DNA of 64,000 nt from Pseudomonas fluorescens (lineage in GTDB: Bacteria > Pseudomonadota > Gammaproteobacteria > Pseudomonadales > Pseudomonadaceae): assembly GCF_001623525.1 (NCBI RefSeq), contig NZ_CP015225.1:2046001-2110000 (forward strand). The letters run 5' to 3'. Made by a program: the position numbers and the translations under genes. How positions within the stretch are numbered: the first letter of the stretch is position 1; every line of letters begins with the position of its first letter. A model generated the notes under the pieces. The model was not told the DNA's origin, made no database searches, and saw only the letters and a list, made by a program, of their open reading frames with translations. Positions 4,580-21,348 of the stretch are shown here, one piece after another.

Positions 4580-5254
4580 TCAAGCCGGCCGATCTTCGGT
4601 TTCGTCAATGAATTTCAGGATGCTGACGCCGCCGCGCAGGATGTCGTCGGCGATGGCCTTGCGAGCCTTCGATGGTTTTTTATCCCTGAGCGCATCCATC
4701 AGCACCAAGTGTTCGTCGGCACCAATGTAGGAGTTGTGGCCGTAGGTGTAGAACAGATTCAGGATCGGCCCCATGGAGACCCACAAACCCTCGATCTGGG
4801 CGGTGAGCATGTCCATGCCCGACAACCTGTAGAGCGTGAAGTGAAACTCGCGGTTGTGATGCATGGCCGCCAACCCGTCGTTCTTGCGATCGGCTTCCTC
4901 GAACAGCTTGTGCAGCTCCAGAAGCCTGGCCAGGTCGGCATCGGTCACATTGTGCGTGGCCATTTCGGCGGCCAGCCCTTCCAGCGCGATGCGAATGGTA
5001 CGAACCTCCAGATACCGCGCCCGGGTCAATGCCGGCACCGTTGCAAACCGGCCAGAGCGAAGCTCCAGGCCGCGCTCGCTGACAAGCCGAAGGCAGGCCT
5101 CACGCACCGGTGTGACACTGGTCCCCAGTCGCTCCGCAAGATCCTGCATGACCAACCGTTCCCCTGGTTTGAAGTTTCCAGCGATCAGTCCTTCGCGAAT
5201 CGAAAAGTACGCCCGAGCCGAAAGGTTGCCTTGCTCCAAGGGTTGAATCTGCAC
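4580..5254 (-). CDS. GntR family transcriptional regulator, FCD (FadR) subfamily
   Basis: A 224-residue regulator with an N-terminal winged helix (ARAYFSIREGLIAGNFKPGERL, AERLGTSVTPVREACLRL), the standard GntR operator-reading region, then a helical FCD domain. Residues that bind a metal in FCD proteins appear as an Asp/Arg-rich helix near the domain start and as HHNREFHFTLY and a later HxxLxxAL helix. Translation starts at a GTG (5254) behind a CAGGAGC ribosome site. It lies in the same orientation as, and downstream of, the aminotransferase/transketolase genes but is separated from them by a hairpin, so it has its own promoter. A TATAAGT-type repeat 70 bp upstream also occurs twice in the divergent promoter at 8.6-8.75 kb, which makes it the likely local repressor and self-regulator. 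Confidence 0.9.
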   Translation of the reverse strand: MQIQPLEQGNLSARAYFSIREGLIAGNFKPGERLVMQDLAERLGTSVTPVREACLRLVSERGLELRSGRFATVPALTRARYLEVRTIRIALEGLAAEMATHNVTDADLARLLELHKLFEEADRKNDGLAAMHHNREFHFTLYRLSGMDMLTAQIEGLWVSMGPILNLFYTYGHNSYIGADEHLVLMDALRDKKPSKARKAIADDILRGGVSILKFIDETEDRPA

Positions 5255-5324
5255 AGTTAGCTCCTGATATTGGCGGTCCCGGGAAGTGGCATGACGGTTT
5301 CCGCCCCCCTACGCGATAAGACGC

Positions 5325-5340
5325 CACTTATAACATATAG
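5325..5340 (-). promoter_or_regulatory. Putative GntR operator, copy 1 (autoregulatory)
   Basis: Read on the minus strand the site is CTATATGTTATAAGTG, a direct repeat TATATGT-TATAAGT. It lies about 70 bp upstream of the GntR GTG start. The same repeat occurs at 8631-8650 and 8724-8740. Seen directly: the shared motif. Inferred: that the GntR protein binds it. Confidence 0.6.
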
Positions 5341-5366
5341 GCACTTGGGTGCCGACAATCGCCAGT

Positions 5367-5396
5367 ACCGAAGGCAGGTGTCAGCCCGCCTTCGGT
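5367..5396 (-). terminator. Hairpin after the aminotransferase gene (likely terminator of the minus-strand operon)
   Basis: Perfect 9-bp arms ACCGAAGGC (5367-5375) and GCCTTCGGT (5388-5396) with a 12-nt loop, starting 19 bp past the stop of the aminotransferase gene and before the GntR promoter. No T run follows on the minus strand, so termination is inferred from position and symmetry. Confidence 0.55.
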
Positions 5397-5414
5397 CAGT
5401 GACCGATAGCGCGG

Positions 5415-6698
5415 CTACACCAGCGCTTTCAAGACGTCCTCAATCACCCCAAGGGACTCATCCAGTATCTCCCGGGTGTGCGCGGTAGACAGGTACAGCC
5501 GCTTGAGTTGCATCGGCTGGAAGATATGACGCTTCTCGATCAGGCGCTGACGGAACGCCATATCGAGCGCGTCATCATTGCGCAGCAGATCGGTGTATTG
5601 GCAGTACGGTCCCTCGAAAAAATACAGCAGCCAGGCCGAACCATAACCTGCACTCTGTGCCGCAATGCCCAGGCGCTGAACGATGGCATCCAGTTGCGTG
5701 CGCATATAGTCACCGAGTTCGAACAACCGCTCGTAGGTCCCGGGGCGCGCCAGCTCTTCAAGGGTGGCCTGCACCGCTGCCAGCGTTGAAGGCGTGCCAT
5801 TGCAGGTGCCGCCCATGAACACTCCTTTGGGGCCGGCCATGCCGATCAGGTGCATCAGCTCTCGCTTGCCCGCGATGAACCCTACGGGATAGCCGGACGA
5901 AGCGGCCTTGCCAAAGGTGGCCAGGTCCGGGGTCACGCCCACGATTGACTGATAGCCGCCCAATGCATGCCTGAAACCGGTAATCACCTCGTCGAAGATG
6001 AGCACGACGCCATGGGTACGCGTCAGGCTGCGCAGGTCCTTGAGGAAAGCATCCGTTGCGGCCACCGCCCCCATGTTGTGGGCGATGGGCTCGACGATGA
6101 TGGCGGCCACCTCCCCCGGATGAGCCTTGAGGTACCGCTCGACCGCCTCTGCATCGTTGTAAGGCAGGACGGCGGTGTACTCGGCGGCCGCGTGCAAAAT
6201 ACCGTCGGACATCGGGTCGAACTGACCGATCTTGTCTCTGGCAGTCTGTCCGTTCATGGCGACGTAATCGTGCCAGCCATGATATCCGCCCTGGAACTTG
6301 ATGATCCGTTTGCGCCCCGTGGCCGCACGGGCAAGCCGCAGGGCGTGATAGGTCGCCTCCGACCCGCTGTTGCAGAACGCAATCTGTTCGGCACAGGGAA
6401 TGTACCGGACCAGCGTCTCGGCCACTTCGACTTCCAGATCGGTAATGCCTGCGCCCATCAGGTCCATGCGCTGCGCAACTTCAAAAACCCGGTCACGAAT
6501 GGCCGGATGCCCGTGCCCCAACACGTGAGCGCCGAACCCGCAGTGAAAGTCAGTGTGGCGGTGACCATCGGCATCGAAGAGGTAGGCACCTTCGGCGCGC
6601 ACGAACGCGTAGGGTTGTCCGAGCTTGCGGCTGGGACTCAGATGACCGCCTGGCAGCACTTTTTCCGCACGGGCATACCACGCTTGATTAGCCGACAT
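5415..6698 (-). CDS. Class III PLP-dependent aminotransferase, glutamate-1-semialdehyde-aminomutase-like
   Basis: A 427-residue fold-type I aminotransferase. The N-terminus, VLPGGHLSPSR, is the glutamate-1-semialdehyde-mutase-like opening. CNSGSEATYHALRLARAATG is the PLP phosphate-binding segment, FQGGYHGWHDY the cofactor-stacking segment, LIFDEVITGFR contains the Asp that pairs with the pyridine nitrogen, and the FGKAASSGYPVG segment holds the Schiff-base lysine. It is the last gene of a minus-strand operon and overlaps the transketolase C-subunit stop by 11 bp. Haem synthesis is unlikely as its job because of this catabolic setting: a transketolase pair, a second transaminase and a polyamine-type importer. 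It more likely shuttles or removes an amino group from the imported compound. Substrate unknown. Confidence 0.88.
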   Translation of the reverse strand: MSANQAWYARAEKVLPGGHLSPSRKLGQPYAFVRAEGAYLFDADGHRHTDFHCGFGAHVLGHGHPAIRDRVFEVAQRMDLMGAGITDLEVEVAETLVRYIPCAEQIAFCNSGSEATYHALRLARAATGRKRIIKFQGGYHGWHDYVAMNGQTARDKIGQFDPMSDGILHAAAEYTAVLPYNDAEAVERYLKAHPGEVAAIIVEPIAHNMGAVAATDAFLKDLRSLTRTHGVVLIFDEVITGFRHALGGYQSIVGVTPDLATFGKAASSGYPVGFIAGKRELMHLIGMAGPKGVFMGGTCNGTPSTLAAVQATLEELARPGTYERLFELGDYMRTQLDAIVQRLGIAAQSAGYGSAWLLYFFEGPYCQYTDLLRNDDALDMAFRQRLIEKRHIFQPMQLKRLYLSTAHTREILDESLGVIEDVLKALV

Positions 6699-7698
6699 GG
6701 TGCTGCCCCTTGCCTGAAAGAGTGGTCAACGCTTCGCGGGTGACCGCTTCGATGCCCGCCGCATCCAGCCGGTAATGCCTGTACAGGTGGGTCGGCGGAG
6801 CGATAAGGCTGTACTCGTCGTGGATACCATGGCGTACCAGACGTACACCGGCGCCCTCGTCGGCCAGCACTTCGGCCACGGCACCGCCCAGACCGCCAAG
6901 GACGTTGTGTTCCTCAACGGTGATCAGCAGATTCGTCCCGGTGGCAGCGTTCAAGATCGCCTCGCGGTCGATGGGCTTGAGGGTGTGCATGTCGATGACG
7001 CCGACCGCGATACCGCTGTCAGTCAACGCCTTGGCTGCTTCCAGGGTCGGGTGCAGCATGCTGCCGGTGGCAATCAAGGTGACGTCATGGCCGACCGAAT
7101 GCACGATGGCTTTGCCAAACGTGAAGGTGACATCGTCTCGGTAGACAATGGGCTCCTGGCCGCGTCCGATACGGAAATAAATCGGCTGCGGATGATGAAT
7201 CGACGCGCGAATGGCGGCCGCCAGTTGCGGACCGTCTGCCGGGGCGACCACGGTGAGGTCGGCGATGCTGCGCATGATCGCGATGTCCTCGGTGGCATGG
7301 TGCGAGGTGCCGTAAAAGCCGAGGCTGATGCCGGTGTGATGGCCGATCAGACGCACCGGCAACGCCGAGTAAGCCACATCCATACGAATCTGCTCACAGC
7401 ACAACAGCGCCAGGAATGACGCAAAGGTGGCCACGAACGGCATGGTCCCGGTGGTGGCAATGCCGGCCGCGGCACTCACCATGTTCTGCTCGGCAATGCC
7501 AAACTGGATGAACAGCTCCGGATGCTTTTCGGCGAAGCGGTTCAGGCCGTTGGAATATTGCAGGTCGGCCGTCCCGACGGCGATCGGGTGGCCGTCGGCG
7601 ACCAGGTCCAACAGCCCTTCCGACAGATAATCAAGCCCCGGATTGATGGCGTTCAGTTGGCGGTACTGCCAACTCTTGGGGTTGACCGGCGCACTCAT
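6688..7698 (-). CDS. Transketolase-like protein, C-terminal (pyrimidine-binding) subunit
   Basis: This 336-residue protein matches the second half of transketolase: a pyrimidine-binding domain with FIQFGIAEQNMVSAAAGIA, in which the glutamate of GIAEQNM activates thiamine diphosphate, then VGIRLxGHHTGIS-type and HHATEDIAIMRSI segments, and a C-terminal transketolase domain with TLIATGSM and VIDMHTLKPID. It lacks the N-terminal domain, which is encoded by the next gene upstream with a 4-bp ATGA overlap, so the active enzyme should be an N2C2 heteromer. Split transketolases occur in archaea and in bacterial sugar-degradation clusters, where they act on unusual ketoses. The co-encoded aminotransferases suggest an amino-sugar or amino-polyol route, which is inference. 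Confidence 0.92.
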   Translation of the reverse strand: MSAPVNPKSWQYRQLNAINPGLDYLSEGLLDLVADGHPIAVGTADLQYSNGLNRFAEKHPELFIQFGIAEQNMVSAAAGIATTGTMPFVATFASFLALLCCEQIRMDVAYSALPVRLIGHHTGISLGFYGTSHHATEDIAIMRSIADLTVVAPADGPQLAAAIRASIHHPQPIYFRIGRGQEPIVYRDDVTFTFGKAIVHSVGHDVTLIATGSMLHPTLEAAKALTDSGIAVGVIDMHTLKPIDREAILNAATGTNLLITVEEHNVLGGLGGAVAEVLADEGAGVRLVRHGIHDEYSLIAPPTHLYRHYRLDAAGIEAVTREALTTLSGKGQHHVG

Positions 7699-8579
7699 TG
7701 AACACCTCCATTGGCTTTGATTTCTTCGATTGCCAGCACTTCATCTTCCGGCGCGAGCCAACCCAGGTGCCATCCGGGTTCGGTTTCCATGTACTCCACC
7801 CCCTTGCCTTTGGCGGTGATTGCAATCACACAGACCGGACGCTCCCGCGCAGGCTCGGCTTTCAACTCCCGAAACAACATCGCGACAGCGGCTACGTCAT
7901 GGCCGTCCACCTCCCTGACATCCCAGCCAAAGGCTCGCCATTTATCGGCCAGAGGTTCGATACCCACCACGTCATCGACCTTGCCATCGAGCTGGTAGCC
8001 GTTGCGATCGACGATGGCGATCAGGTTGCCGGTCTTGTGGTGCGCGGCCGCCAATGCAGCTTCCCAGACCTGGCCCTCTTGCATCTCGCCATCGCCCAGC
8101 AGCACGTAGACGTCAAATACGTTGCCCCGCAGGCGCCCGCCCAGTGCCATGCCCAACCCGCCCGACAGGGCATGACCGATGGACCCCGAGCTGAAATCCA
8201 CACCCGGCACCTTGCGCATGTCCGGGTGATCCCCCAGTGGACTGCCCAGCCGGGTGTAGTCATCGAGCCAGGCCTTGTCGAAGAAATCCCAGTCGGCCAG
8301 CAGCGGATAGAGCCCGACAGCGGCGTGGCCCTTGCCCATCAGAAACCGGTCGCGCCCGGTCCACTTCGGCTCGCCACGCTTGAGGCGCAGGGTGTCGTAG
8401 TACAGCGCGGAGAAAATCTCGGCACAGGAAAACACCGAGGTGTAGTGGCCGACCTTGGCGATGGAAATCAGCCGCACCGTCTCAAGGCGCACGAACAGTG
8501 CGCGCTCTTTCAGACGAGCGATCTGCTCGGGCGTCAACGGCGTTACGGGATCACGAACCGCAAGATTTGCAGCGGGCAT
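7695..8579 (-). CDS. Transketolase-like protein, N-terminal (TPP-binding) subunit
   Basis: A 294-residue protein covering the first transketolase domain. Near the start it has SIAKVGHYTSVFSCAEI, with the expected GHxxSxxSxxEI helix (here the usual GHxGG is altered). It continues with GKGHAAVGLYPLLA, then GSLGHALSGGLGMALG-like residues, and GDGEMQEGQVWEA with the downstream IAIVDRNGYQ, which together bind the diphosphate and magnesium of thiamine diphosphate. Its stop overlaps the start of the C-subunit gene by 4 bp, so the two are translationally coupled. It is the first gene of the minus-strand operon; two TATAAGT-type repeats in the 187-bp divergent gap upstream are candidate operators. Assignment of the fold is sure, the substrate is not. 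Confidence 0.92.
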   Translation of the reverse strand: MPAANLAVRDPVTPLTPEQIARLKERALFVRLETVRLISIAKVGHYTSVFSCAEIFSALYYDTLRLKRGEPKWTGRDRFLMGKGHAAVGLYPLLADWDFFDKAWLDDYTRLGSPLGDHPDMRKVPGVDFSSGSIGHALSGGLGMALGGRLRGNVFDVYVLLGDGEMQEGQVWEAALAAAHHKTGNLIAIVDRNGYQLDGKVDDVVGIEPLADKWRAFGWDVREVDGHDVAAVAMLFRELKAEPARERPVCVIAITAKGKGVEYMETEPGWHLGWLAPEDEVLAIEEIKANGGVQ

Positions 8580-8630
8580 GAGGGCACTCCTGAGTGGGTT
8601 GATCGAGGCCTGACGCGGCCTTCTTCTTAC

Positions 8631-8650
8631 AACTTATAAGTTATATTTTG
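8631..8650. promoter_or_regulatory. Putative GntR operator, copy 2
   Basis: AACTTATAAGTTATATTTTG contains the palindrome AACTTATAAGTT and the direct repeat TATAAGT-TATATTT. It lies 52 bp upstream of the transketolase N-subunit start. It shares TATAAGTTATA with the site at 8724-8740. Confidence 0.6.
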
Positions 8651-8723
8651 TAGAATCAAGCATCGATCGACGTTTTTATTTTTTCTCGCCGAGGGCTTGC
8701 GCGACATCCATTTCGATGCCAAT

Positions 8724-8740
8724 CATATAAGTTATAAGTG
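8724..8740. promoter_or_regulatory. Putative GntR operator, copy 3
   Basis: CATATAAGTTATAAGTG is a perfect tandem TATAAGT-TATAAGT 27 bp before the start of the plus-strand aminotransferase gene, in a position to block its promoter or translation start region. It is the best-formed copy of the three. Confidence 0.65.
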
Positions 8741-8766
8741 ATCAGTAACGCTCAACGAGGCTTTTC

Positions 8767-10158
8767 ATGATGCAGGAAACCACCCCTCCCCTAACCGAAC
8801 TGGCCCGCACGGACATGCGCTTCCACCTGCATTCGCAGACCAATCTGCGGGCGCACCAACAACACGGCCCGCTGGTTATCGAGCGAGGGTCAGGGATATA
8901 CGTGACGGACGAACATGGCCGGGACTACATCGAAGGGATGTCGGGCCTATGGTGTGCCGGGCTTGGCTTTTCCAATCCCAGGCTGGTGCAAGCGGCGCAA
9001 CGCCAGATGGCGGTGCTGCCCTACTACCACACCTTCAATCATCGCGTGCCGAACGTGGTCGCACAGTTGGCCGAGCGCATCGCCAGCCTGGTGCCGTTCG
9101 AAAAGCCAAAGGTGTTCTTTGCGTGCTCGGGCTCGGAAGCCAACGACTCGATGGTCAAGCTCGCCTGGGCGTACCACCGGGCTCGCGGTAATGACGGCAA
9201 GCGCAAGATCATTGCCCATCAGAAGGGTTTCCATGGCTCGACGGTAATGGGGGCCAGTTTGTCGGGGCTGCCCAACATGCATGCAGCGTTCGGCCTGCCG
9301 TTGGAAAACAGCGTACTGCATGTGCAATGCCCACACTTCTATCGCCATGGCATCGAGGGCGAAAGCGAAGCGCAGTTCACTGAACGCTTGCTGCGGGACC
9401 TGGAGCAGCGCATCGAAGCGGAAGGTGCCGACACCATCGCCGCGTTCATTTCGGAACCGGTGATGGGGGCCGGTGGTGTGATCGTGCCACCGCCCGGTTA
9501 TTTCGTCGGCGTCCAGGCGCTGCTGAAAAAGCACGACATCCTGTTCCTCGCCGACGAGATCATCTGCGGGTTCGGCCGCACCGGTCGCTGGTTCGGCCAC
9601 CAGACGCTTGGGTTTACCCCGGATATGATGGCCTGCGCCAAGAGCCTGTCATCGGGTTATCAGCCCATTTCCTGTGTAGTGGTTGCGGAAAATGTCTACC
9701 AGGTCATTGAAGAGCAGAGCCAGCAACTAGGTGGTTTTGGCCACGGCTTTACTTACTCGGGCCATCCGGTGGCAGCCGCCGTGGCCCTGGAAACCCTGAC
9801 CCTCTATCAGGAAATGCACCTGCCGCAACGCACCGAAGAGCTTGGCCGTCTACTGCACCAGCAATTGGAACCGCTGCTCGCGCACCCGCTGATCGGCGAG
9901 GTTCGTGGCATTGGCCTGGTGGCTGGCCTGGAACTGGTCGTAGACAAACACACCCGTGCCCCTTTCCCCCGCGAAATCGCCATCGGCGTACAGGTCGAAC
10001 GGGCAGCCCGTGAACAAGGGCTGATTGTGCGCAACATGGGTGATTCCATCGCCCTGGCGCCGCCTTTCATCATCAGCGCCGAGGAGATCGTCGAGCTGGT
10101 CGCCCGCCTGACACGCGCACTGGATGCCGTCGCCCTGGCCAACGGGTTGTCATTGTGA
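8767..10158 (+). CDS. Class III omega-aminotransferase (putrescine/beta-alanine:pyruvate type)
   Basis: A 463-residue class III aminotransferase. Visible motifs are YIEGMSGLWCAGLGF, typical of the SpuC/omega-amine transaminase group, ACSGSEANDSMVKLAW for PLP phosphate binding, HQKGFHGSTVMGASLSG, FLADEIICGFGRTGRW with the pyridine-binding Asp, and MACAKSLSSGYQPIS with the Schiff-base lysine. Members transfer the terminal amine of diamines, beta-alanine or amino-alcohols to pyruvate. It leads the plus-strand operon; the TGA overlaps the ATG of the ABC ATPase gene by one base. With a polyamine-type importer and an SDR downstream, it likely deaminates the imported amine to an aldehyde or ketone. 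A second Met codon follows the first, so the start may be 8770. Confidence 0.92.
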   Translation: MMQETTPPLTELARTDMRFHLHSQTNLRAHQQHGPLVIERGSGIYVTDEHGRDYIEGMSGLWCAGLGFSNPRLVQAAQRQMAVLPYYHTFNHRVPNVVAQLAERIASLVPFEKPKVFFACSGSEANDSMVKLAWAYHRARGNDGKRKIIAHQKGFHGSTVMGASLSGLPNMHAAFGLPLENSVLHVQCPHFYRHGIEGESEAQFTERLLRDLEQRIEAEGADTIAAFISEPVMGAGGVIVPPPGYFVGVQALLKKHDILFLADEIICGFGRTGRWFGHQTLGFTPDMMACAKSLSSGYQPISCVVVAENVYQVIEEQSQQLGGFGHGFTYSGHPVAAAVALETLTLYQEMHLPQRTEELGRLLHQQLEPLLAHPLIGEVRGIGLVAGLELVVDKHTRAPFPREIAIGVQVERAAREQGLIVRNMGDSIALAPPFIISAEEIVELVARLTRALDAVALANGLSL

Positions 10159-11264
10159 TGAACGCCAAGGCCACTCGCCCTCAAACCACCCTGCCGTTGA
10201 TCGAGTTCAACGGTGTTCAGAAAAGCTATGACGGCAAGACGCTGGTCATCAAGGATTTGAACCTGGCCATCAGCCGTGGCGAATTCCTGACCCTGTTGGG
10301 TGCCTCGGGCTCCGGTAAAACCACGACGCTGATGATGCTCGCCGGTTTCGAAACCCCGACCCGCGGCGAAATCCTCATGGGTGGCACGCCGATCCAGAAA
10401 AAACCGGCCCATCAGCGGGGCATGGGCATGGTGTTCCAGAACTACGCCCTGTTCCCCCACATGAGCGTCGAGGAAAACCTTGCCTACCCGCTGAAGATGC
10501 GTGGCCTGAATCGCTCGGACCTGCAAGCCAAGGTCAAGCGTGCCATCGACATGGTGCAACTGCACGGCATGCAGCAACGGCGCATCACCGAGCTTTCCGG
10601 AGGCCAGCAACAACGCGTGGCGCTGGCCAGGGCGATGGTCTTCGAACCGGAAGTCATTCTGATGGACGAGCCTCTGGGAGCGTTGGACAAGAACCTGCGC
10701 GAACACATGCAGTACGAGATCAAGCAACTGCACAAATCCCTGGGCGTCACCGTCGTCTACGTGACGCACGACCAGAGCGAAGCCCTGACGATGTCGGATC
10801 GGATCGCCGTCTTCCATGAGGGAGACATCGCTCAGATCGGCTCGCCGACTGCGCTGTACGAACACCCGGAAAACGCCTATGTCGCCAACTTCATCGGCGA
10901 GAACAACGTGCTGGTCGGCACCGTCCAACATCGCGACGGGCAGACCTGTGACGTGACCCTGGAAAACGGCCTGCACGTCACCGGCTCCGCTAAAGCGCTC
11001 AAGGGCCTGCGCCCCGAACGGGTTGAATTGGTCATCCGTCCGGAGAACATCCGCCTGGGCCCGGTGGCAAGCATGCCCTGGCAGGCCACGGTAATCGACA
11101 GCATCTACCTCGGAGACCATCTGCGGGTGCATCTGCGCCTTGGCCATCAGCAAGCGCTGATTGTGAAAGTCGCCAATAACGGTTTTTTCAAACAGCTGCG
11201 AACCGGCCAGGTGACCGGCTTTGACTGGAGTACCGACGACGCCCATCTATTCGAACTGAGCTGA
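10158..11264 (+). CDS. ABC transporter ATP-binding protein, PotA-like
   Basis: A 368-residue ATPase of the spermidine/putrescine (MOI/CUT1-like) importer group. Walker A GASGSGKTT, Q-loop MVFQNYALFPHM, signature LSGGQQQRVALARAMV, Walker B VILMDEPLGALD and switch-His VTHDQSEAL are intact. The C-terminal 110 residues form the TOBE/regulatory beta domain usual for PotA. The ATG at 10158 shares its A with the preceding TGA, so translation is coupled to the aminotransferase; a GTG one codon earlier is a less likely start. It energises the two permeases encoded at 12540 and 13806. Confidence 0.93.
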   Translation: MNAKATRPQTTLPLIEFNGVQKSYDGKTLVIKDLNLAISRGEFLTLLGASGSGKTTTLMMLAGFETPTRGEILMGGTPIQKKPAHQRGMGMVFQNYALFPHMSVEENLAYPLKMRGLNRSDLQAKVKRAIDMVQLHGMQQRRITELSGGQQQRVALARAMVFEPEVILMDEPLGALDKNLREHMQYEIKQLHKSLGVTVVYVTHDQSEALTMSDRIAVFHEGDIAQIGSPTALYEHPENAYVANFIGENNVLVGTVQHRDGQTCDVTLENGLHVTGSAKALKGLRPERVELVIRPENIRLGPVASMPWQATVIDSIYLGDHLRVHLRLGHQQALIVKVANNGFFKQLRTGQVTGFDWSTDDAHLFELS

Positions 11265-11415
11265 CCCACCGCTGCACCCGACAACGATAAGTCTCGACAA
11301 CAATAACGATCCGAGAGGCAACCATGCACACCATCCCTAGCACCGTTTAGTTCGTGACTGCCCGTTTGTGAACCTTTGCTTCCTTTTACATCCTCAAACA
11401 GCAGGAGGGACCAAC

Positions 11416-12468
11416 ATGTCCTCGATATTCCGTCGCACCGCACTGGTCTGTTCGATTTGCGCCGCCACCCTACTTGCCAGCCACGCCGCCCTGGCCCGTG
11501 ACCTGACCGTCGTCGGCTTTGGGGGCGCCACCCAGGAAGCCTTCGACAAGGCCTACTTCAAGCCCTACGCCGCACTCAGCGGCAAGCCGGTGGTGCAAGA
11601 CACCTACGACGGCGGCATCGCCAAGCAGAAAGCCATGGTCCAGGCTGGCAACCCCACCTGGGACGTGGTCCAGATGGACGAGAACGAAATGACCCTGGCC
11701 TGCGAGCAAGGCCTGCTGGAGCCCCTCGATCACAGCAAGCTGAGCAGCGCCGCCGACATCCCGCCAGACAAGTTCGCTCCGTGCGGGGTCGGCGCCATCG
11801 TCTGGTCGGAAGTCATGACCTATGACAACAAGAAATTCGCCAACGAGGGTCCGAAAACCTGGACCGACTTCTGGAACGTGAAGAAATGGCCCGGCAAGCG
11901 CGGCCTGCGCAAACAGGCACGCATGACCCTGGAAATCGCCCTCATGGCCGACGGCGTCAAGCCTGCCGATGTCTACACGGTACTGGCGACCAAGGCCGGA
12001 CAGGATCGAGCCTTCGCCAAGCTGGATGAAATCAAGCCCTACATCCAGTGGTGGGAAACCGGCGCTCAACCCCTTGAATGGTTGTCCTCAGGCAGCGTTG
12101 CGGTCACAGCCGCCTACAACGGTCGCATCGCCATCGCCAACCAACAGGGCGCGCATTTTCCACTGATCTGGAACCAGCAGCTCTACAGCATGGATTACTG
12201 GACCATCATCAAGGGCACGCCGAACCTTGCCGACAGCTACGCACTCCTCGACTACATGCTCAGCCCCAAAGCCCAGGGCGCCTTCACCCAAGCCATTCCC
12301 TACGGCATCGTCAACAGCAAAGCCCAGGCCGCACTGGACAAGCAGACGCTGAGCAACCTGCCCACGGCCCCCGCCAACCTGGAAAACGCCCTTCTGCTCG
12401 ACACACCGTTCTGGGTCAACTACGAGGAAGACCTGATGGCGCGCTTTACCAACTGGGCGGCGAAGTAA
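11416..12468 (+). CDS. Periplasmic substrate-binding protein, PotD/PotF-like
   Basis: A 350-residue secreted binding protein. The start at 11416 is preferred to an upstream in-frame codon because AGCAGGAGGG lies just before it and the resulting N-terminus is a clean signal peptide: basic residues, hydrophobic LVCSICAATLLASHA, cleavage after ALA near residue 28. The mature protein opens DLTVVGFGGATQEAFDKAY, has the DVVQMDENEM strand and an Ala/Tyr-rich LDYMLSPKAQGAFTQAIPYG segment, all typical of the type 2 PotD family that binds polyamines and related cations. It lies between the ATPase and permease genes of a full importer. Substrate is inferred to be an amine because of the transaminases, not shown. 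Confidence 0.92.
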   Translation: MSSIFRRTALVCSICAATLLASHAALARDLTVVGFGGATQEAFDKAYFKPYAALSGKPVVQDTYDGGIAKQKAMVQAGNPTWDVVQMDENEMTLACEQGLLEPLDHSKLSSAADIPPDKFAPCGVGAIVWSEVMTYDNKKFANEGPKTWTDFWNVKKWPGKRGLRKQARMTLEIALMADGVKPADVYTVLATKAGQDRAFAKLDEIKPYIQWWETGAQPLEWLSSGSVAVTAAYNGRIAIANQQGAHFPLIWNQQLYSMDYWTIIKGTPNLADSYALLDYMLSPKAQGAFTQAIPYGIVNSKAQAALDKQTLSNLPTAPANLENALLLDTPFWVNYEEDLMARFTNWAAK

Positions 12469-12539
12469 GTCCAGCCCTTGCCTGAATGGCGGCTTCGTTC
12501 ACGCGAAGCCGCTGATATCGAATTCCGAGGTCAGTCGAT

Positions 12540-13793
12540 ATGTCCGCCCCTGCGCTGGATTCACTAGCAAGCGCTCATCAGAAGTCGAGCAGACAAAAAC
12601 GTCTCGTCTCTGTGCTGCTGTTGTTACCCCTGTTGATCTACACCGCTGTCTTCTTCGTTCTTCCCATCGGCATGATGCTGTATCGCGCCGTCAGTAACCC
12701 GGAGCTGATCCAGGCCTTCCCTCGCACGGTCCAGGTACTGGAGCAGCAACCCCCCAGCGATGCTCAAGGCCTGCCGGGCGATGCGGTGTTCGAGGCGATC
12801 GAGCAGGACTTTATCCACGTCGAGAATATGGGCGTCATGGGTGAAGCGGCACGGCGCATGAACTACGAAAACAGTGGTTACCGTTTCCTGATTACAGCCA
12901 CTGCCCGCCGTTACCAGTGGCCCGCCAAACAGCAACCCGTCAGCGGTGAGTCATCGCGTGCGCGCCTGACCGCCATCGACCCACGCTGGTCCACGCCAGA
13001 GCTTTGGCAGGCGTTCGAACGGGCGTCACCGGCCTACACGTCCTATTACCTGCTCAGCGCCCTTGATCTTGAGCGAACAGCCCACGGCATCCAGCGCGTG
13101 GCCCCGGACAAACGGGTCTATCTGGACCTTACCTTCAAGACGTTGAAGATAGCCTTTGTCGTCTCCGTCTTGTGCCTGCTGCTGGGCTTTCCCTTCGCCG
13201 TGTTGCTGGTAAAAGCTTCCCGCCCCTTTCAGATGCTGTTGATCCTGGCGGTGATGCTGCCCTTCTGGACGTCGCTACTGGCGCGGACCACAGCCTGGAT
13301 CGTGGTGCTGCAAGAGAAAGGTATCGTCAACACCCTTCTGCTGAAACTGGGGCTGATCGAGCAACCGTTGCCAATGATCTTCGATGCCCTGGGGGTCTAC
13401 ATCGTCATGGTCCATATCCTGCTGCCCTTCACCGTGCTGCCGTTGTACAGCGTCATGAAAGGCATTCCGGCCCACTACATGCGCGCCTCGCAATCCCTCG
13501 GTGCTCATCCGGTTCGCGGCTTCCTGCACGTGTACCTGCCCATGACGCTCACAGGTATCGGCTCCGGCACGCTGCTGACATTCATCGTCGCGGCTGGCTA
13601 CTACGTCACGCCCACTCTGGTAGGCAGCGCACGGGAACAGATGCTCGGCTATTTCATCGCCTTCTACACCAACACCACAGTCAACTGGGGCATGGCCTCG
13701 GCACTGGGCCTGGTGCTGATCCTCTGCGTCATGGCGATCTACCTGGTCGCTGCACGGTTGGTGGGCATTCGCCAGATCGCCGGACTCAAATAA
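12540..13793 (+). CDS. ABC transporter permease, PotB-like, with a large periplasmic insertion
   Basis: A 417-residue inner-membrane permease, longer than the roughly 280-300 residues of PotB. TM1 lies near residues 20-45, then about 150 residues of hydrophilic sequence (roughly 50-195) precede the remaining five helices. The EAA coupling loop is visible as SQSLGAHPVRGFLHVYLPMT, with the conserved A/S-x-x-LGA-x(5)-F pattern. The extra domain between TM1 and TM2 is known in some PotB relatives and faces the periplasm. A GAGGTCAG ribosome site lies upstream. It forms the heterodimeric channel with the permease encoded 12 bp downstream. Confidence 0.92.
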   Translation: MSAPALDSLASAHQKSSRQKRLVSVLLLLPLLIYTAVFFVLPIGMMLYRAVSNPELIQAFPRTVQVLEQQPPSDAQGLPGDAVFEAIEQDFIHVENMGVMGEAARRMNYENSGYRFLITATARRYQWPAKQQPVSGESSRARLTAIDPRWSTPELWQAFERASPAYTSYYLLSALDLERTAHGIQRVAPDKRVYLDLTFKTLKIAFVVSVLCLLLGFPFAVLLVKASRPFQMLLILAVMLPFWTSLLARTTAWIVVLQEKGIVNTLLLKLGLIEQPLPMIFDALGVYIVMVHILLPFTVLPLYSVMKGIPAHYMRASQSLGAHPVRGFLHVYLPMTLTGIGSGTLLTFIVAAGYYVTPTLVGSAREQMLGYFIAFYTNTTVNWGMASALGLVLILCVMAIYLVAARLVGIRQIAGLK

Positions 13794-13805
13794 TCGGGAA
13801 AACCT

Positions 13806-14624
13806 ATGAATCATTTCACCTTGTGTTTCGTTGGTCGCCATCTGATGCGCCTGTTCGGGATCGTCATGATCGTATTCATGATCGCGCCTTTGCTGGCCGT
13901 GGTGCCTATATCGTTCAGCAGCGGCACATTCCTGTCCTATCCCCTGCCGGGGCTATCCTTGCGCTGGTATGAGAAGGTCTTCAGTGCTGGCCCCTGGCTT
14001 CAGGCGTTGCGCAACAGCCTGTTGGTCGGTTGTGCCGCGACGCTGTTGGCCACGCTGCTGGGGACACTCGCGGCGCTGGCATTCGCCCGACGCAACCTGC
14101 CCGGCGCCACCCACGTATTGGCGCTGCTGATTTCGCCAATGATCATTCCACCGGTGATTTCCGGGCTGGGCATGTATTTTCTGTTTGGACAGTTGGGCCT
14201 GACAGGCACTCTGACCGGGATGATCCTGGCCCATACGGTACTGGCGACCCCCTTCGTCCTGATCAACGTCGCCGCCAGCCTGCAAGGCCTGGACATGAGT
14301 CTGCTCAGGGCCGCGGCAATGTCAGGGGCATCGCCCGTGCGCGCGTTCATCGATGTCGGCCTGCCGATCATTGCACCGGGGGTGATCTCGGGGGCGCTGT
14401 TTGCCTTCATGACGTCTTTCGACGAAATCGTTGTCGTGCTGTTCATCGGCGGCCCCGGCCAACGCACGCTGCCACGGCAAATGTTCGACGGCATCCGTGA
14501 CACCATCGATCCATCGATTGTCGCGATGTCATCGTTCCTGCTGGTCGTGGGCCTAGCTGGCCTGCTGACCACGACCTGGCTCTCGATGCGCTCAAGCAGA
14601 ACATTGAATCAATCGGTAGCCTGA
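13806..14624 (+). CDS. ABC transporter permease, PotC-like
   Basis: A 272-residue permease with six predicted helices. It opens with a hydrophobic FGIVMIVFMIAPLLAVVPIS, the PotC pattern, has the SFSSGTFLSYPLPGLSLRWY periplasmic segment common to PotC proteins, and the EAA loop AAAMSGASPVRAFIDVGLPI followed by APGVISGALFAF. It is the second half of the membrane channel of the importer encoded from 10158; size and gene order (ATPase, binding protein, permease B, permease C) are those of a complete unit. The SDR gene follows 73 bp later on the same strand. Confidence 0.93.
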   Translation: MNHFTLCFVGRHLMRLFGIVMIVFMIAPLLAVVPISFSSGTFLSYPLPGLSLRWYEKVFSAGPWLQALRNSLLVGCAATLLATLLGTLAALAFARRNLPGATHVLALLISPMIIPPVISGLGMYFLFGQLGLTGTLTGMILAHTVLATPFVLINVAASLQGLDMSLLRAAAMSGASPVRAFIDVGLPIIAPGVISGALFAFMTSFDEIVVVLFIGGPGQRTLPRQMFDGIRDTIDPSIVAMSSFLLVVGLAGLLTTTWLSMRSSRTLNQSVA

Positions 14625-14697
14625 TATCCAGCGGCCACGAACGCTTTCACAGCAGCCGGCCTGGCATGAGCCGGCAATACCTTCAGGAGCAACATCC

Positions 14698-15432
14698 ATG
14701 TACATCGTCACAGGCGGGACCCAGGGCATCGGCGCCGCAACCGTGGAAAAACTGGCCAGCCTCGGCCATCCGGTGGTATTCACCGGACGCGACCAGTCGG
14801 CAGGCACCCAGTTGGCCGCAAGCCTGCCCAACTGCACCTTCGTCGCGGGCGACGTATCGAATGAAGACGAGTGCCGCAACGTCGTAGCAACAGCGCTGCA
14901 ATTGGGCAACGGCAAGCTGGCGGGGCTGGTCAACAACGCAGGCATGTCGGGGCGCAAAGCGTTCATTGAGACCACCCAACAGGAGTGGGACACGCTATTC
15001 GCCGTCAATACCCGCTCGGTCTTTTTCTACACCAAACACGCGTTGCCGGGTCTGATCGCAGGCCGGGGCGCTGTCGTGAACGTCTCCTCCATCGCTGGAA
15101 AGACCGGAGAGCAAGGGCTTGCCACCTACTGCGCGAGCAAGGCCGCCCTTCTCGGCCTGACCCAGGCGCTGGCCCTGGAATACGGTGGGCAGGTGCGTTT
15201 CAACGCGGTCTGCCCCGGACAGATCGCCACGCGCATGATGGATAAAATCGTCAATGACGAAGCCCGGCTATCAGCACTGACAGCCAGGATTCCGGAAGGA
15301 CGCCTGGCGTCCGCCAGGGAAGTCGCGGAGGCCATCTGCTGGTTGCTTTCACCGGGCGCAAGCTATGTCAACGGTACGACCCTCACGGTCGATGGCGGTG
15401 AAACAGCCGGCTTGCTCTCGCCTGAATCCTGA
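14698..15432 (+). CDS. SDR family oxidoreductase
   Basis: A 244-residue classical short-chain dehydrogenase. TGGTQGIG near residues 5-12 binds the nicotinamide cofactor, NNAG is at about residue 80, the catalytic Ser lies in VNVSSIAG and the YxxxK pair in YCASKAALLG, followed by NAVCPGQIATRM and the C-terminal NGTTLTVDGG. The substitution of the usual PG motif by CPGQIATRM is within family variation. Being last in the importer/transaminase operon, it probably oxidises or reduces a hydroxyl or carbonyl group of the imported compound or of the deaminated product. Start at 14698 has CAGGAGCAAC upstream. NAD or NADP preference cannot be settled by eye. Confidence 0.92.
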   Translation: MYIVTGGTQGIGAATVEKLASLGHPVVFTGRDQSAGTQLAASLPNCTFVAGDVSNEDECRNVVATALQLGNGKLAGLVNNAGMSGRKAFIETTQQEWDTLFAVNTRSVFFYTKHALPGLIAGRGAVVNVSSIAGKTGEQGLATYCASKAALLGLTQALALEYGGQVRFNAVCPGQIATRMMDKIVNDEARLSALTARIPEGRLASAREVAEAICWLLSPGASYVNGTTLTVDGGETAGLLSPES

Positions 15433-17865: not shown

Positions 17866-19788
17866 ATGACTCGGCATAGCGCGCAGCCCCATCCGAGCGA
17901 ACTCGCTGCCTTCGTCAACGAGCATTTCCCTGAGCGGCGAATCAGGCCGGACCGGGTGATTGCCCAGTCCTGGTATCGCAGCGTCATAAAACATCGACTC
18001 GATCCCTCCTCGTCCGCGCGCCTGGATGTTCTTTGCGCCGAAGACATCCGCCAGCATCAGCAACGACACCAGCAGTACCTCGATATCGCCAGCCAGGGCG
18101 TCAGCGGTTTGGCCCGGCGCGTGGTACCGGCCGGCTTCGCGGTGTTGCTCAGCGATGAACACGGCATCACCCTCGATGCCCGCCTGCCCGACCAGCCTGT
18201 TCCTTATGTCCGCTCGGGCTTGGTGGTCGGGGCGCGCTGGGACGAGTCCATCGCCGGCACCAACGGCATTGGCACCACGTTGGCTGCGGCCGAGCCTTTG
18301 ATCATCCACCGCGAGGAGCACTTCCTCACCTCGAATGCTCGCCTGAGCTGTTCCGTTGCGCCGATTTTCAACGCCCAGGGCCTGTTGCAGGGTTGCTTGA
18401 ACGCTACTTGCCTGAACAGCAATGGACCCAAGGAAAGCCAATACCTGACCCTGCAGTTGGTGATCCTGTATGCCCGCTTGATCGAGAACGCACACTTTCG
18501 CCAAAACTACCGCGATCGGCTGACCCTATCGCTCAAGCCCATCGACGAGATTGCCGATCTCGCCAACGAGCAATTGCTGGCGCTGGATGACAGTGGTCGA
18601 GTGATCGGTGCCAATCACGCGGCCTTTGTTGCCCATGACCAGGCCCATGGCCCACATCTGCTGGGCGGCCCTATCGAGCAACTGCTGCCCATGGGCGTCA
18701 ACGAGCTACTGCGCCTGACCAACGGCGGCGCCCGCGGCCTGCGCCTGCGTGCGCGGCATGACGAAGCGCTGCTGGACCTGAGCCTGCGCATCCCCTCGAG
18801 CGATCACCGTCTGGCGCCAGCGCCGGCCAAGGCACAGCGGCCCCGCCACCCCGATCTGGAGCAACTGGCCGGTGATGACCCGACGCTACAGCAGGCCGTG
18901 CGCCGCTTGCACAAGGTCATCGACAAAGACATCGCCATCCTGATCACCGGCGAGACAGGCACTGGCAAAGAGGCTTTTGCGCGAGCCATTCACCAGGCCA
19001 GCGCGCGTCGGGACGAGCCCTTTATCGCACTCAACTGCGCGGCAATCCCCGAGAGCCTGATCGAGAGTGAACTGTTCGGCTACCGTGGCGGTAGCTTCAC
19101 CGGTGCCGATAAAAAAGGCATGAAGGGCAAGCTGGAACTGGCCAATGGCGGCACGCTGTTTCTCGATGAAATCGGCGATATGCCAGCCCATCTGCAAACC
19201 CGTCTGCTACGCGTACTGGCCGAACGGGAGATCAGCCCCATCGGTGCTCCAATGCCGGTATCACTGGACATCCAGGTGATTTGCGCCACGCACCAAGACC
19301 TGCAAGGTATGTTGCGCGACAAACACTTTCGCGAGGATCTGTTCTATCGCCTCAACGGCATGAACCTCAGTCTACCGCCCTTGCGCGAACGCAGTGACCG
19401 CGCGCAACTGATCCAGCGTCTGCTCGACAGCCAAGCCGAAGCCAAGGGTGTGCAGCTCACCGCCCAGGCCCGCCAATGCCTGCTGGAGGCGTCCTGGCCC
19501 GGCAATATCCGCCAACTGATCAATGCCCTGCGCTACGCGGTGGCGATGGCCGAGGACGGCAATGTCGATGTCGACTGCCTCCCCGCCGAACTGCTGCAGG
19601 GCGACGCGTATGCCCGGCTGGCCAGCCCGTCCGTGGGCAGCGAACCACCCGCGTCGAATCTGCTGGAGATCTTGCGCCGGCATCGGTGGAACATCAGCGC
19701 GGCAGCCGCCGAGTTGGGGGTCGCTCGCTCGACGCTCTATCGACAGATGAAAAAGCAACGTTTGGTGCAACCCAACGACCGTCTCTGA
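17866..19788 (+). CDS. Sigma54-dependent activator, AcoR-like (GAF-AAA+-Fis HTH)
   Basis: A 640-residue enhancer-binding protein. An N-terminal AcoR-like sensory region (residues 30-330) includes a GAF domain with ARWDESIAGTNGIGTTLA. The AAA+ domain has Walker A GETGTGKE at 362-369, the sigma54-contact loop as GSFTGA at 409-414 (the usual GAFTGA with Ala to Ser, frequent in AcoR relatives), and Walker B LFLDEIGDM. The C-terminal Fis-type helix-turn-helix is ILRRHRWNISAAAAELGVARSTLY. AcoR-like activators control acetoin and alcohol oxidation genes. It sits next to a convergent aldehyde dehydrogenase and PQQ alcohol dehydrogenase pair, and the latter has a good sigma54 promoter and inverted repeats, so it is the probable activator. 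Confidence 0.93.
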   Translation: MTRHSAQPHPSELAAFVNEHFPERRIRPDRVIAQSWYRSVIKHRLDPSSSARLDVLCAEDIRQHQQRHQQYLDIASQGVSGLARRVVPAGFAVLLSDEHGITLDARLPDQPVPYVRSGLVVGARWDESIAGTNGIGTTLAAAEPLIIHREEHFLTSNARLSCSVAPIFNAQGLLQGCLNATCLNSNGPKESQYLTLQLVILYARLIENAHFRQNYRDRLTLSLKPIDEIADLANEQLLALDDSGRVIGANHAAFVAHDQAHGPHLLGGPIEQLLPMGVNELLRLTNGGARGLRLRARHDEALLDLSLRIPSSDHRLAPAPAKAQRPRHPDLEQLAGDDPTLQQAVRRLHKVIDKDIAILITGETGTGKEAFARAIHQASARRDEPFIALNCAAIPESLIESELFGYRGGSFTGADKKGMKGKLELANGGTLFLDEIGDMPAHLQTRLLRVLAEREISPIGAPMPVSLDIQVICATHQDLQGMLRDKHFREDLFYRLNGMNLSLPPLRERSDRAQLIQRLLDSQAEAKGVQLTAQARQCLLEASWPGNIRQLINALRYAVAMAEDGNVDVDCLPAELLQGDAYARLASPSVGSEPPASNLLEILRRHRWNISAAAAELGVARSTLYRQMKKQRLVQPNDRL

Positions 19789-19799
19789 TCCCCTATGCA

Positions 19800-19838
19800 A
19801 AACGCCCAGACCGTCAATCCGGCCTGGGCGCTTTTTGA
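19800..19838. terminator. Rho-independent terminator of the AcoR-like gene
   Basis: CGCCCAG (19803-19809) pairs with CTGGGCG (19824-19830), extended inside by CCG/CGG, and is followed by CTTTTT. It starts 12 bp after the activator stop and lies between convergent genes, so it may also help end transcription of the aldehyde dehydrogenase gene on the other strand. Confidence 0.8.
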
Positions 19839-19852
19839 TGGCGGTGGAACTG

Positions 19853-21286: not shown

Positions 21287-21348
21287 ATCCGCGTCTCTCC
21301 TGTCGAGGATGTGCGACCGACCGGCAAGGCTACCGGCCGGCCGGAGGC

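What the first reader, a model, noticed from the sequence alone, without database searches (positions are those of the whole stretch)
4580..15432. Apparently undescribed amine/amino-polyol catabolic island: two transaminases, split transketolase, PotABCD importer and SDR under a GntR regulator
Seen: GntR/FCD, class III aminotransferase, transketolase C and N subunits on one strand; aminotransferase, complete polyamine-type importer and SDR on the other. Known: split transketolases serve unusual ketose pathways, and PotABCD-type importers carry amines. Inference: the imported compound is a polyhydroxylated amine (amino sugar or amino polyol). It would be deaminated, adjusted by the SDR and cut by the transketolase into a two-carbon ketol donor and an aldose. 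I recall no named pathway with this gene set.
Basis: partly seen in the sequence, partly recalled or inferred. Interest (0 to 1): 0.8.

Follow-up and report, generated by a model that had tools for sequence, protein, structure and literature searches.

The report
Mobile amine-eating cassette using transketolase
A sharply bounded block of ten genes, found in scattered soil, plant-associated and marine bacteria, appears to import an unidentified amine-carrying acid, strip off its nitrogen and cut it with an unusual two-part transketolase; its food compound is unknown, but the parts narrow it down enough to test.

Summary
Window 4580-15432 holds ten genes: GntR/FCD regulator, class III aminotransferase AT1, split transketolase (TKC, TKN), omega-aminotransferase AT2, PotA/D/B/C-type importer, SDR. 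In three other Pseudomonas genomes DNA similarity starts and stops within 20 bases of these edges; in a fourth it stays inside: a mobile cassette. The set recurs in Azospirillum and Rhizobiaceae and, with other aminotransferases, in further proteobacteria. An operator-like palindrome (ACTTATAAGT) precedes TKN in 16 of 24 islands and 0 of 76 other transketolases.

All 30 binding proteins compared carry the Arg of GABA-binding Pf622 where E. coli PotD/PotF have Ser/Asp.

Best model: an amine-bearing acid is imported; AT1 (in relatives replaced by, among others, an (R)-amine-transaminase homologue) turns a hydroxymethyl-amine end into a 1,3-dihydroxy-2-ketone; the transketolase moves two carbons onto glyceraldehyde 3-phosphate; the leftover aldehyde is oxidised. 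Substrate unknown, chemistry inferred. Five paper searches aimed at the set listed no description.

The parts
4580..5254 (-). GntR/FCD regulator, first gene at one cassette edge
   Evidence: Pfam GntR 46.8 bits, FCD 78.4 bits; no NCBIfam equivalog reaches its cut-off; start of DNA similarity to L017 and L024
5326..5339 (+). third operator-like site (ACTTATAACATATA), about 70 bases upstream of gntR
   Evidence: same variant in G044 and another one-mismatch variant at the corresponding place in G005; not seen there in G068 and G585
5415..6698 (-). AT1, class III aminotransferase of the glutamate-1-semialdehyde-aminomutase branch, not HemL itself
   Evidence: Pfam Aminotran_3 212 bits; hemL 347 bits against cut-off 527; the only locus of this genome over that cut-off is G000:C1:5787450-5788712, 620 bits; SPxR motif in 13 of 13 AT1
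6688..7698 (-). TKC, C-terminal half (pyrimidine-binding and C domains) of split transketolase; 11-base overlap with AT1
   Evidence: Pfam Transket_pyr 127 bits, Transketolase_C 103 bits; best solved relative 6yaj
7695..8579 (-). TKN, N-terminal (ThDP-binding) half of split transketolase
   Evidence: Pfam Transketolase_N 124 bits; best solved relative 6yak
8632..8641 (+). operator-like site 1, exact palindrome ACTTATAAGT in the divergent promoter region 8580-8766
   Evidence: 2 matches with at most 1 mismatch in 64 kb, expected 0.25, 0 of 100 shuffles with 2; conserved upstream of TKN in islands, absent from non-islands; 14-base form with at most 1 mismatch only in this promoter in the genome, control pattern 1 match
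8730..8739 (+). operator-like site 2 (AGTTATAAGT) in the same promoter region
8767..10158 (+). AT2, omega-amine/omega-amino-acid-type aminotransferase (PRK06105)
   Evidence: NCBIfam NF004767 660 bits over cut-off 517; solved relatives 6tb1, 6g4b series, 5ghf
10155..11264 (+). PotA-type ATPase of the importer
   Evidence: TIGR01187 379.5 bits over cut-off 355.6
11368..12468 (+). substrate-binding protein; predicted ligand a zwitterionic amino acid (Arg253, Asp276)
   Evidence: Pfam SBP_bac_8 141 bits; closest solved relatives 4i1d, agropine permease 6hly, GABA-binding Pf622 9d57; pocket comparison
12540..13793 (+). PotB-type permease
   Evidence: NCBIfam PotH/PotB models 155/145 bits, below their cut-offs; Pfam BPD_transp_1 22.1 bits, below its cut-off of 26.4
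13806..14624 (+). PotC-type permease
   Evidence: Pfam BPD_transp_1 48 bits; PotC model 150 bits, below its cut-off
14698..15432 (+). SDR oxidoreductase, last gene at the other cassette edge
   Evidence: Pfam adh_short_C2 203 bits; end of DNA similarity to L024

Best explanation
A self-contained, horizontally moving catabolic cassette. GntR controls the two divergent operons from ACTTATAAGT sites and responds to the substrate or a product (inferred from the conserved sites). The PotADBC-type importer brings in a zwitterionic compound with both an amine and a carboxylate (inferred from the pocket). AT1, replaced in relatives by AT1b or by an (R)-amine-transaminase homologue (ATIV), removes an internal amine of the type HOCH2-CH(NH2)-CHOH-R and so makes HOCH2-CO-CHOH-R, the standard transketolase donor (inferred). 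The split transketolase moves the two-carbon ketol onto glyceraldehyde 3-phosphate, giving xylulose 5-phosphate and R-CHO (inferred from family and retained catalytic residues). R-CHO is oxidised by an SSADH-like aldehyde dehydrogenase, encoded in some islands and elsewhere in this genome (inferred). AT2 removes a primary omega-amine, and the SDR adjusts a hydroxyl or carbonyl (inferred). Amidase, acetylpolyamine-amidohydrolase or oxoprolinase-like genes near some relatives would free the amine from amides or lactams first (inferred).
For: Sharp boundaries and recurrence; from the AT1 side 7 of 7 plasmid records have TKN beside it; of the 9 records with PotD at 55% or more among the 40 of 256 listed, 8 also hold TKN. 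Operator-like site upstream of TKN in 16 of 24 islands and 0 of 76 others; with L028 it is present in 17 of 17 islands whose GntR is at least 58% identical and 0 of 7 others. AT1 is in 13 islands and never with AT1b (3) or ATIV (7); L117 has both of these, 2 of 24 have none seen. ATIV's best solved relatives are (R)-selective amine transaminases, E about 1e-89. Island transketolases are not one clade (p-AU 0.00019 on 51 of 100 rows; 6 label changes, at least 5 forced), so the tie to amine genes was made or lost several times. Transketolase: His26, His66, His100, Asp155, Asn185, Glu411, Ser385, His461, Arg520 kept, Arg358 to Leu and Asp469 to Tyr in 24 of 24. Pocket: Arg in 30 of 30, Asp in 27 of 30; Ser232 in PotD, Asp247 in PotF at the Arg site. 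Precedents: sulfo-transketolase moves the C2 ketol of a sulfonated ketose onto GAP (PMC11659671, passages); transketolase plus succinate-semialdehyde dehydrogenase was suggested to turn 5-ketogluconate into tartrate, and an R358I/H461S/R520Q TktA is more active on it (PMC12016104, passages).
Against: No substrate, enzyme assay or expression datum. One amine does not explain both AT1 and AT2; the SDR's step is unassigned. AT2's family is broad: 313 plasmid records at E<=1e-100, one at 60% identity or more. Islands were collected through the transketolase, so its constancy there is by construction; L115 and L119 have importer or ATIV genes with a PDH-like E1 but no transketolase on their plasmids at E<=1e-60, and four islands carry that E1 too, so another ThDP reaction may be the shared one. 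Leu358 and Tyr469 are shared by sugar-context relatives (70 and 72 of 76) and say nothing special about amines; the 358 region is gapped, His261 aligns to a gap in all 100 rows, and only one of the three changes of the 5-ketogluconate-active TktA is matched. ATIV passes no NCBIfam cut-off; its best models are branched-chain and D-amino-acid transaminases, and several of its solved relatives are labelled branched-chain aminotransferases. 8jv1, labelled spermidine/putrescine-binding, also has the pocket Arg. For the looser operator pattern the reversed control gave 0 to 4 matches per genome, in G005 more than the real one (4 against 3). Amidase, deacetylase and ALDH are absent from the Pseudomonas form.
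Confidence: 0.46

Rival explanations
1. Omega-amino-acid or lactam catabolism of the GABA, 5-aminovalerate or caprolactam type: AT2 plus an SSADH-like dehydrogenase form the main line, and the transketolase and AT1 handle a side product or a hydroxylated variant.
For: GABA-like pocket; AT2's solved relatives include the series 6g4b (that this is the P. jessenii caprolactam enzyme is recalled); in P. jessenii such an enzyme converts 6-aminocaproate, with a 6-oxohexanoate dehydrogenase and an oxoprolinase-like caprolactamase (PMC6061476, abstract and passages); 8 of 24 islands carry a NylA-like amidase and L108 and L117 have oxoprolinase-like genes nearby.
Against: TKN lies beside AT1 in 7 of 7 plasmid records found through AT1, and the operator-like site precedes both TKN and AT2 in most islands, which is much for a side role. 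No lactamase or aldehyde dehydrogenase lies in the Pseudomonas cassette.
Confidence: 0.24
2. Polyamine or acetylpolyamine catabolism, as the importer annotation suggests.
For: PotA model passed (379.5 over 355.6 bits); acetylpolyamine-amidohydrolase homologues in 3 of 24 islands; 8jv1, deposited as spermidine/putrescine-binding, is the fifth solved relative of the binding protein and shares the Arg.
Against: PotD model only 32 bits against a cut-off of 582; Arg at the site that is Ser232 in E. coli PotD and Asp247 in PotF; unmodified polyamines contain nothing a transketolase can cut (general knowledge).
Confidence: 0.1
3. Opine or Amadori-compound catabolism: a sugar-derived amine is imported and its polyol arm shortened by SDR and transketolase.
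For: Agropine- and mannopine-binding proteins are among the closest solved relatives of the binding protein; many carriers are Rhizobiaceae.
Against: No recognised opine-cleaving family among the ten genes; aminotransferases need a primary amine; carriers include the gammaproteobacterium Motiliproteus and Phaeobacter (L098, L109, L117).
Confidence: 0.1
4. AT1 acts as an aminomutase, like its kin HemL: AT2 and AT1 shuffle a vicinal amino-aldehyde to an aminoketone, the SDR reduces the resulting 2-ketoaldehyde to a ketol, and the transketolase cuts it.
For: AT1 is closest to glutamate-1-semialdehyde aminomutase and keeps its SPxR motif; it would give AT2, AT1, SDR and transketolase one role each.
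Against: In 6 islands a class IV transaminase homologue is found instead of AT1, and class IV enzymes are not known to me as aminomutases (recalled).
Confidence: 0.1

Closest known systems
Sulfo-transketolase pathway for sulfoquinovose (SqwGH)
   Same: Split-gene transketolase that moves the C2 ketol of a modified ketose onto GAP, inside a dedicated import-and-catabolism cluster (PMC11659671, passages).
   Different: Phosphate-site motif RAFDR there, L-S-F-H-R here; isomerases make the ketose there, no isomerase family among the ten genes here; sulfonate versus amine.
5-ketogluconate to tartrate route (transketolase plus semialdehyde dehydrogenase)
   Same: Transketolase proposed to act on a carboxylated ketose and an SSADH-type enzyme to oxidise the leftover semialdehyde (PMC12016104 and PMC11066805, passages; the former says mechanistic validation is lacking); the more active E. 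coli variant has R358I, the subfamily here naturally has Leu at that site.
   Different: That variant also has H461S and R520Q, both wild type here. There the ketone is made by a dehydrogenase; here aminotransferases are the candidates.
Caprolactam catabolic cluster of Pseudomonas jessenii
   Same: Omega-aminotransferase, aldehyde dehydrogenase and a CsiR-type regulator in one cluster (PMC6061476, passages).
   Different: No transketolase mentioned in the passages read; no caprolactamase in the window cassette.
GABA/opine binding-protein family (Pf622, Atu4243, AgtB, MotA)
   Same: Among the closest solved relatives of the importer's binding protein; Arg and Asp of the GABA pocket kept.
   Different: Other pocket positions changed in the window protein: W9 to F, F100 to I, F102 to W, W202 to Y.
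(R)-selective amine transaminases (class IV)
   Same: ATIV, found instead of AT1 in 6 of 24 islands and with AT1b in a seventh, has them as its best solved relatives.
   Different: AT1 itself is class III, a different fold type; ATIV passes no NCBIfam cut-off.

Membership tests
Polyamine importer PotABCD | ATPase passes the potA model | tested here: met
   379.5 bits over 355.6
Polyamine importer PotABCD | binding protein passes the PotD or PotF model | tested here: not met
   PotD 32 of 582 bits, PotF 19 of 636
Polyamine importer PotABCD | pocket residue as in E. coli PotD/PotF at the Pf622 Arg205 site | tested here: not met
   Arg in 30 of 30 binding proteins of islands and relatives; Ser232 in PotD, Asp247 in PotF; 8jv1, labelled polyamine-binding, also has Arg
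Transketolase | ThDP, donor and catalytic residues (His26, His66, His100, Asp155, Asn185, Glu411 of TktA) | tested here: met
   24 of 24 islands; His261 could not be aligned, a gap in all 100 rows
Transketolase | full set Arg358/Ser385/His461/Arg520 and Asp469 | tested here: not met
   Arg358 to Leu and Asp469 to Tyr in 24 of 24; the other three kept (region of 358 gapped)
Sulfo-transketolase SqwGH | RAFDR motif and sugar isomerases in the cluster | tested here: not met
   for the residues; no isomerase family in the ten genes
Glutamate-1-semialdehyde aminomutase HemL | passes the hemL equivalog cut-off | tested here: not met
   347 of 527 bits; another locus of the genome passes with 620
Omega-aminotransferase PRK06105 (AT2) | passes the subfamily cut-off | tested here: met
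   660 over 517 bits
Caprolactam degradation cluster | caprolactamase (oxoprolinase-like) with the aminotransferase | tested here: not met
   no such gene among the ten cassette genes
(R)-amine transaminase (for ATIV of relatives) | closest solved relatives are (R)-amine transaminases | tested here: met
   best hits 8zm7, 6xu3, 9vqk; some among the top hits are labelled branched-chain aminotransferase
(R)-amine transaminase (for ATIV of relatives) | activity on (R)-amines | not testable with these tools
   sequence kinship only

The most novel reading that the evidence does not exclude
The cassette degrades aminodeoxy-aldonates (for example 4-amino-4-deoxypentonates or 5-amino-5-deoxyhexonates, the ring-opened lactams of iminosugars): transamination replaces the dehydrogenase that makes 5-ketoaldonates, the Leu358/Tyr469 transketolase cleaves the ketoacid to xylulose 5-phosphate and a hydroxylated semialdehyde, and SSADH finishes it. 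It would also be a natural home of (R)-amine transaminases.
Probability: 0.2. Interest if true: 0.82.

Novelty: new variant of a known kind. Interest (0 to 1): 0.6.

Why it matters
Transketolases that act on modified ketoses have opened unexpected routes such as sulfoquinovose breakdown. This cassette ties such a transketolase to amines, appears to have its own small regulon, and narrows the substrate class enough to screen. In relatives the amine seems to be handled by homologues of (R)-selective amine transaminases, industrial enzymes whose natural substrates are, as far as I recall, not established; the cassette makes that question testable.

Tried and rejected
Polyamine import was set aside as the main reading after the pocket control, though not excluded (8jv1). 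HemL identity of AT1 was rejected. Tyr469/Leu358 as a mark of amine substrates was rejected, because sugar-context relatives share them. One origin of the island transketolases was rejected by the AU test. Sigma-70 promoter scan: 2 sites, expected 2.9; terminator scan: 13, expected 8.7; neither used. No tRNA gene in the window to explain insertion. Passages of PMC5131300 held no statement on the natural role of (R)-amine transaminases, nor did the listings of searches 53 (no paper), 59 and 73. Structure prediction and fold searches were not run.

Rows set aside: L001-L015 (short stretches around search hits, fetched again in longer form or belonging to other transketolases) were left out of the tables and trees. 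L016 and L033 are the same place and both count among the 76 other loci. L117 spans 49.5 kb, with its importer and ATIV 20-40 kb from its transketolase. The AU test used 51 of 100 rows. ORF starts in the scripts are the first ATG/GTG/TTG and some are too long (L028 for example).

Full report
What is there. Window 4580-15432 contains ten adjacent open genes in two divergent groups. Minus strand: TKN, TKC, AT1, GntR. Plus strand: AT2, PotA, PotD, PotB, PotC, SDR. AT1 belongs to the glutamate-1-semialdehyde-aminomutase branch but misses the hemL cut-off (347 of 527 bits); another locus of the genome passes it (620 bits). AT2 passes the PRK06105 omega-aminotransferase model. TKN and TKC are closest to the two chains of the split transketolase of Carboxydothermus.

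It is a cassette. DNA similarity between this window and other Pseudomonas loci is confined to the ten genes: 4580-15414 with L017 (83%), 4580-15432 with L024 (87%), 4593-15422 with L026 (88%), four pieces within 4594-15410 with L023 (73-76%); the query was window 1-24000, the subjects were stretches of 20-21 kb, and nothing outside matched at E<=1e-10. That the block moves as a unit to different places is the inference from this. AT1 at E<=1e-150 is found in 5 of 298 genomes of the genus and in 1 of 398 of a phylum sample, the own genome.

It recurs far away. The fractions below describe this collection, not nature. Of the 100, 24 carry an aminotransferase of the set and 23 carry AT2. Twelve have all ten families (window, L017, L023, L024, L026, four Azospirillum, Pararhizobium gei, Shinella HZN7, Agrobacterium H13-3); Ensifer L037 lacks only PotA, its stretch ending there; four more have transketolase, AT2, PotD/B/C and SDR with another aminotransferase (L098, L107, L109, and L117, where they are spread over 49.5 kb). 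None of the 76 other transketolase loci has a PotD or SDR of the set. Two checks do not start from the transketolase: in the plasmid collection AT1 at 60-80% identity occurs in 7 records, and all 7 have TKN about 1.1 kb away, the next AT1 hit being at 41%; of the 9 records with PotD at 55% or more among the 40 of 256 listed, 8 also hold TKN, the exception being Ochrobactrum quorumnocens.

A conserved operator-like site. The 187-base gap between TKN and AT2 holds ACTTATAAGT at 8632 and AGTTATAAGT at 8730; these are the only matches with at most one mismatch in the 64 kb (expected 0.25, 0 of 100 shuffles with two). The motif lies upstream of TKN in 16 of 24 islands (0.17 expected by shuffling) and 0 of 76 other loci (0.25 expected), upstream of AT2 in 17 of 23, and before PotD in 4 of 18, the four Azospirillum islands. 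L028 also has it between TKN and AT2, missed for TKN because the ORF start is too long. The motif is present in 17 of 17 islands whose GntR is at least 58% identical to this one and in 0 of the 7 others. In the whole 6.9 Mb genome the 14-base form with at most one mismatch occurs only in this promoter, the reversed control pattern giving 1 match. A looser form adds a site upstream of gntR at 5326 and one unrelated site; over five genomes its reversed control gave 0 to 4 matches, in G005 more than the real pattern (4 against 3), so this third site is weaker evidence. That this GntR binds these sites is an inference.

The aminotransferase varies. AT1 is in 13 islands, a different class III enzyme (AT1b) in 3, a class IV enzyme (ATIV) in 7, both AT1b and ATIV in L117, none seen in L027 and L100; AT1 never occurs with the other two. 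AT1 lies behind TKC, while ATIV and AT1b usually lie beside an SDR gene, so a replacement would be by function, not by position. ATIV's best solved relatives are (R)-selective amine transaminases (8zm7, 6xu3, 4ce5 and others, E about 1e-89), ahead of D-amino-acid aminotransferases (E about 5e-31); several of the top hits are labelled branched-chain aminotransferases. No NCBIfam cut-off is passed; the best models are branched-chain and D-amino-acid transaminases. If AT1 and ATIV, of unrelated fold types, do one job, a plain transamination is likelier than an aminomutase reaction.

The importer does not look like a polyamine importer. The binding protein is closest to 4i1d, agropine permease 6hly and GABA-binding Pf622 (9d57); E. 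coli PotD is far behind (E 2e-6). In Pf622 the GABA site is W9, T13, F100, Y102 (F102 before engineering), W202, R205, D228, Y264, with D228 holding the GABA amino group (PMC12999171, passages). That R205 holds the carboxylate is my inference. In 30 binding proteins from islands and relatives (21 PotD-type, 9 second copies) the R205 position is Arg in 30, D228 is Asp in 27 (Glu 2, Thr 1), Y264 is Tyr in 30. As a control, E. coli PotD has Ser232 and PotF has Asp247 at the Arg position, both keeping the Asp. Against this, 8jv1, deposited as spermidine/putrescine-binding, is the fifth solved relative and has the Arg too; I do not know its measured ligand. AT1 keeps the SPxR motif of the aminomutase in 13 of 13; from memory this Arg binds the substrate carboxylate there. 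Both point to a substrate with a carboxylate.

The transketolase subfamily. Against E. coli TktA, Glu411, His26, His66, His100, Asp155, Asn185, Ser385, Phe434, His461, His473 and Arg520 are kept in 24 of 24 islands; Arg358 is Leu in 24 of 24 (70 of 76 others) and Asp469 is Tyr in 24 of 24 (72 of 76 others); the 358 region is gapped and His261 falls in a gap in all 100 rows. A TktA with R358I/H461S/R520Q is more active on 5-ketogluconate, and transketolase plus succinate-semialdehyde dehydrogenase was suggested to lead from it to tartrate, without mechanistic validation (PMC12016104, passages; see also PMC11066805, passages); only position 358 is matched here. An SSADH-like gene lies within the fetched stretch in 11 of 76 other loci and 5 of 24 islands. 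So the subfamily plausibly cuts unphosphorylated, possibly carboxylated ketoses. The tree needs 6 changes of the island label and one clade is rejected (p-AU 0.00019, 51 rows): Variovorax and Brucellaceae island transketolases sit among sugar-context ones. The link with amines was therefore made or lost more than once.

Extra genes in relatives: NylA-like amidase in 8 of 24 islands, acetylpolyamine-amidohydrolase homologues in 3, a fused PDH-like E1 in 4. L115 and L119 combine ATIV and that E1 without a transketolase on their plasmids at E<=1e-60. In this genome the nearest SSADH (62%), deacetylase (41%) and amidase (43%) homologues lie far from the cassette.

Mechanism. Shown: gene content, boundaries, co-occurrence, conserved promoter motif, residue patterns. 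Inferred: import of a zwitterion; transamination to a 1,3-dihydroxy-2-ketone end; C2 transfer to glyceraldehyde 3-phosphate; oxidation of the leftover aldehyde. Unassigned: the SDR step and why two aminotransferases are needed. Rivals are listed; none is excluded by experiment.

Literature. Ten word searches of the held library were run; five aimed at this gene set, the rest at binding proteins, (R)-amine transaminases and 5-ketogluconate. Their listings, capped at 10 to 20 papers, showed no paper describing this set; subscription papers are mostly not in the library. Of the papers named, I saw passages found by terms, none in full.

Noticed in passing
L111 9992-14431 (Agrobacterium pusense plasmid), also L116: Same transketolase subfamily with SSADH-like dehydrogenase and, in L111, an L-idonate 5-dehydrogenase (as annotated): a candidate natural bacterial 5-ketogluconate-to-tartrate route; the cleavage step is called enigmatic in PMC12016104 (passage).
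   Followed up: partly
L018-L021, L016/L017 (genomes G097, G140, G044): Three Pseudomonas genomes carry two copies of this transketolase subfamily 20-53 kb apart; in G097 and G140 both copies are of the non-amine type.
   Followed up: no
L118 9266-12139, L120 9158-12160: Class IV aminotransferase homologues of ATIV in Mesorhizobium and Sinorhizobium sit between an Lrp/AsnC regulator and a glycine C-acetyltransferase, a second recurrent context for this enzyme family.
   Followed up: no
L119 4240-13652, L117 18144-28633: In Salipiger and Phaeobacter the ATIV homologue lies near SDR genes and a PDH-like E1/E2 pair (with amidase, RidA and deacetylase in Salipiger), in Salipiger without a transketolase on the plasmid at E<=1e-60: perhaps a CoA-linked version of the same cleavage.
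   Followed up: partly
window 17866-23529: Near the cassette: by eye, from the translations only, a sigma-54-type activator, an aldehyde dehydrogenase and a quinoprotein alcohol dehydrogenase, which look like a separate alcohol-oxidation locus.
   Followed up: no
G000:C1:2219209-2220627: An amidase homologue elsewhere in the genome has one in-frame stop codon.
   Followed up: no
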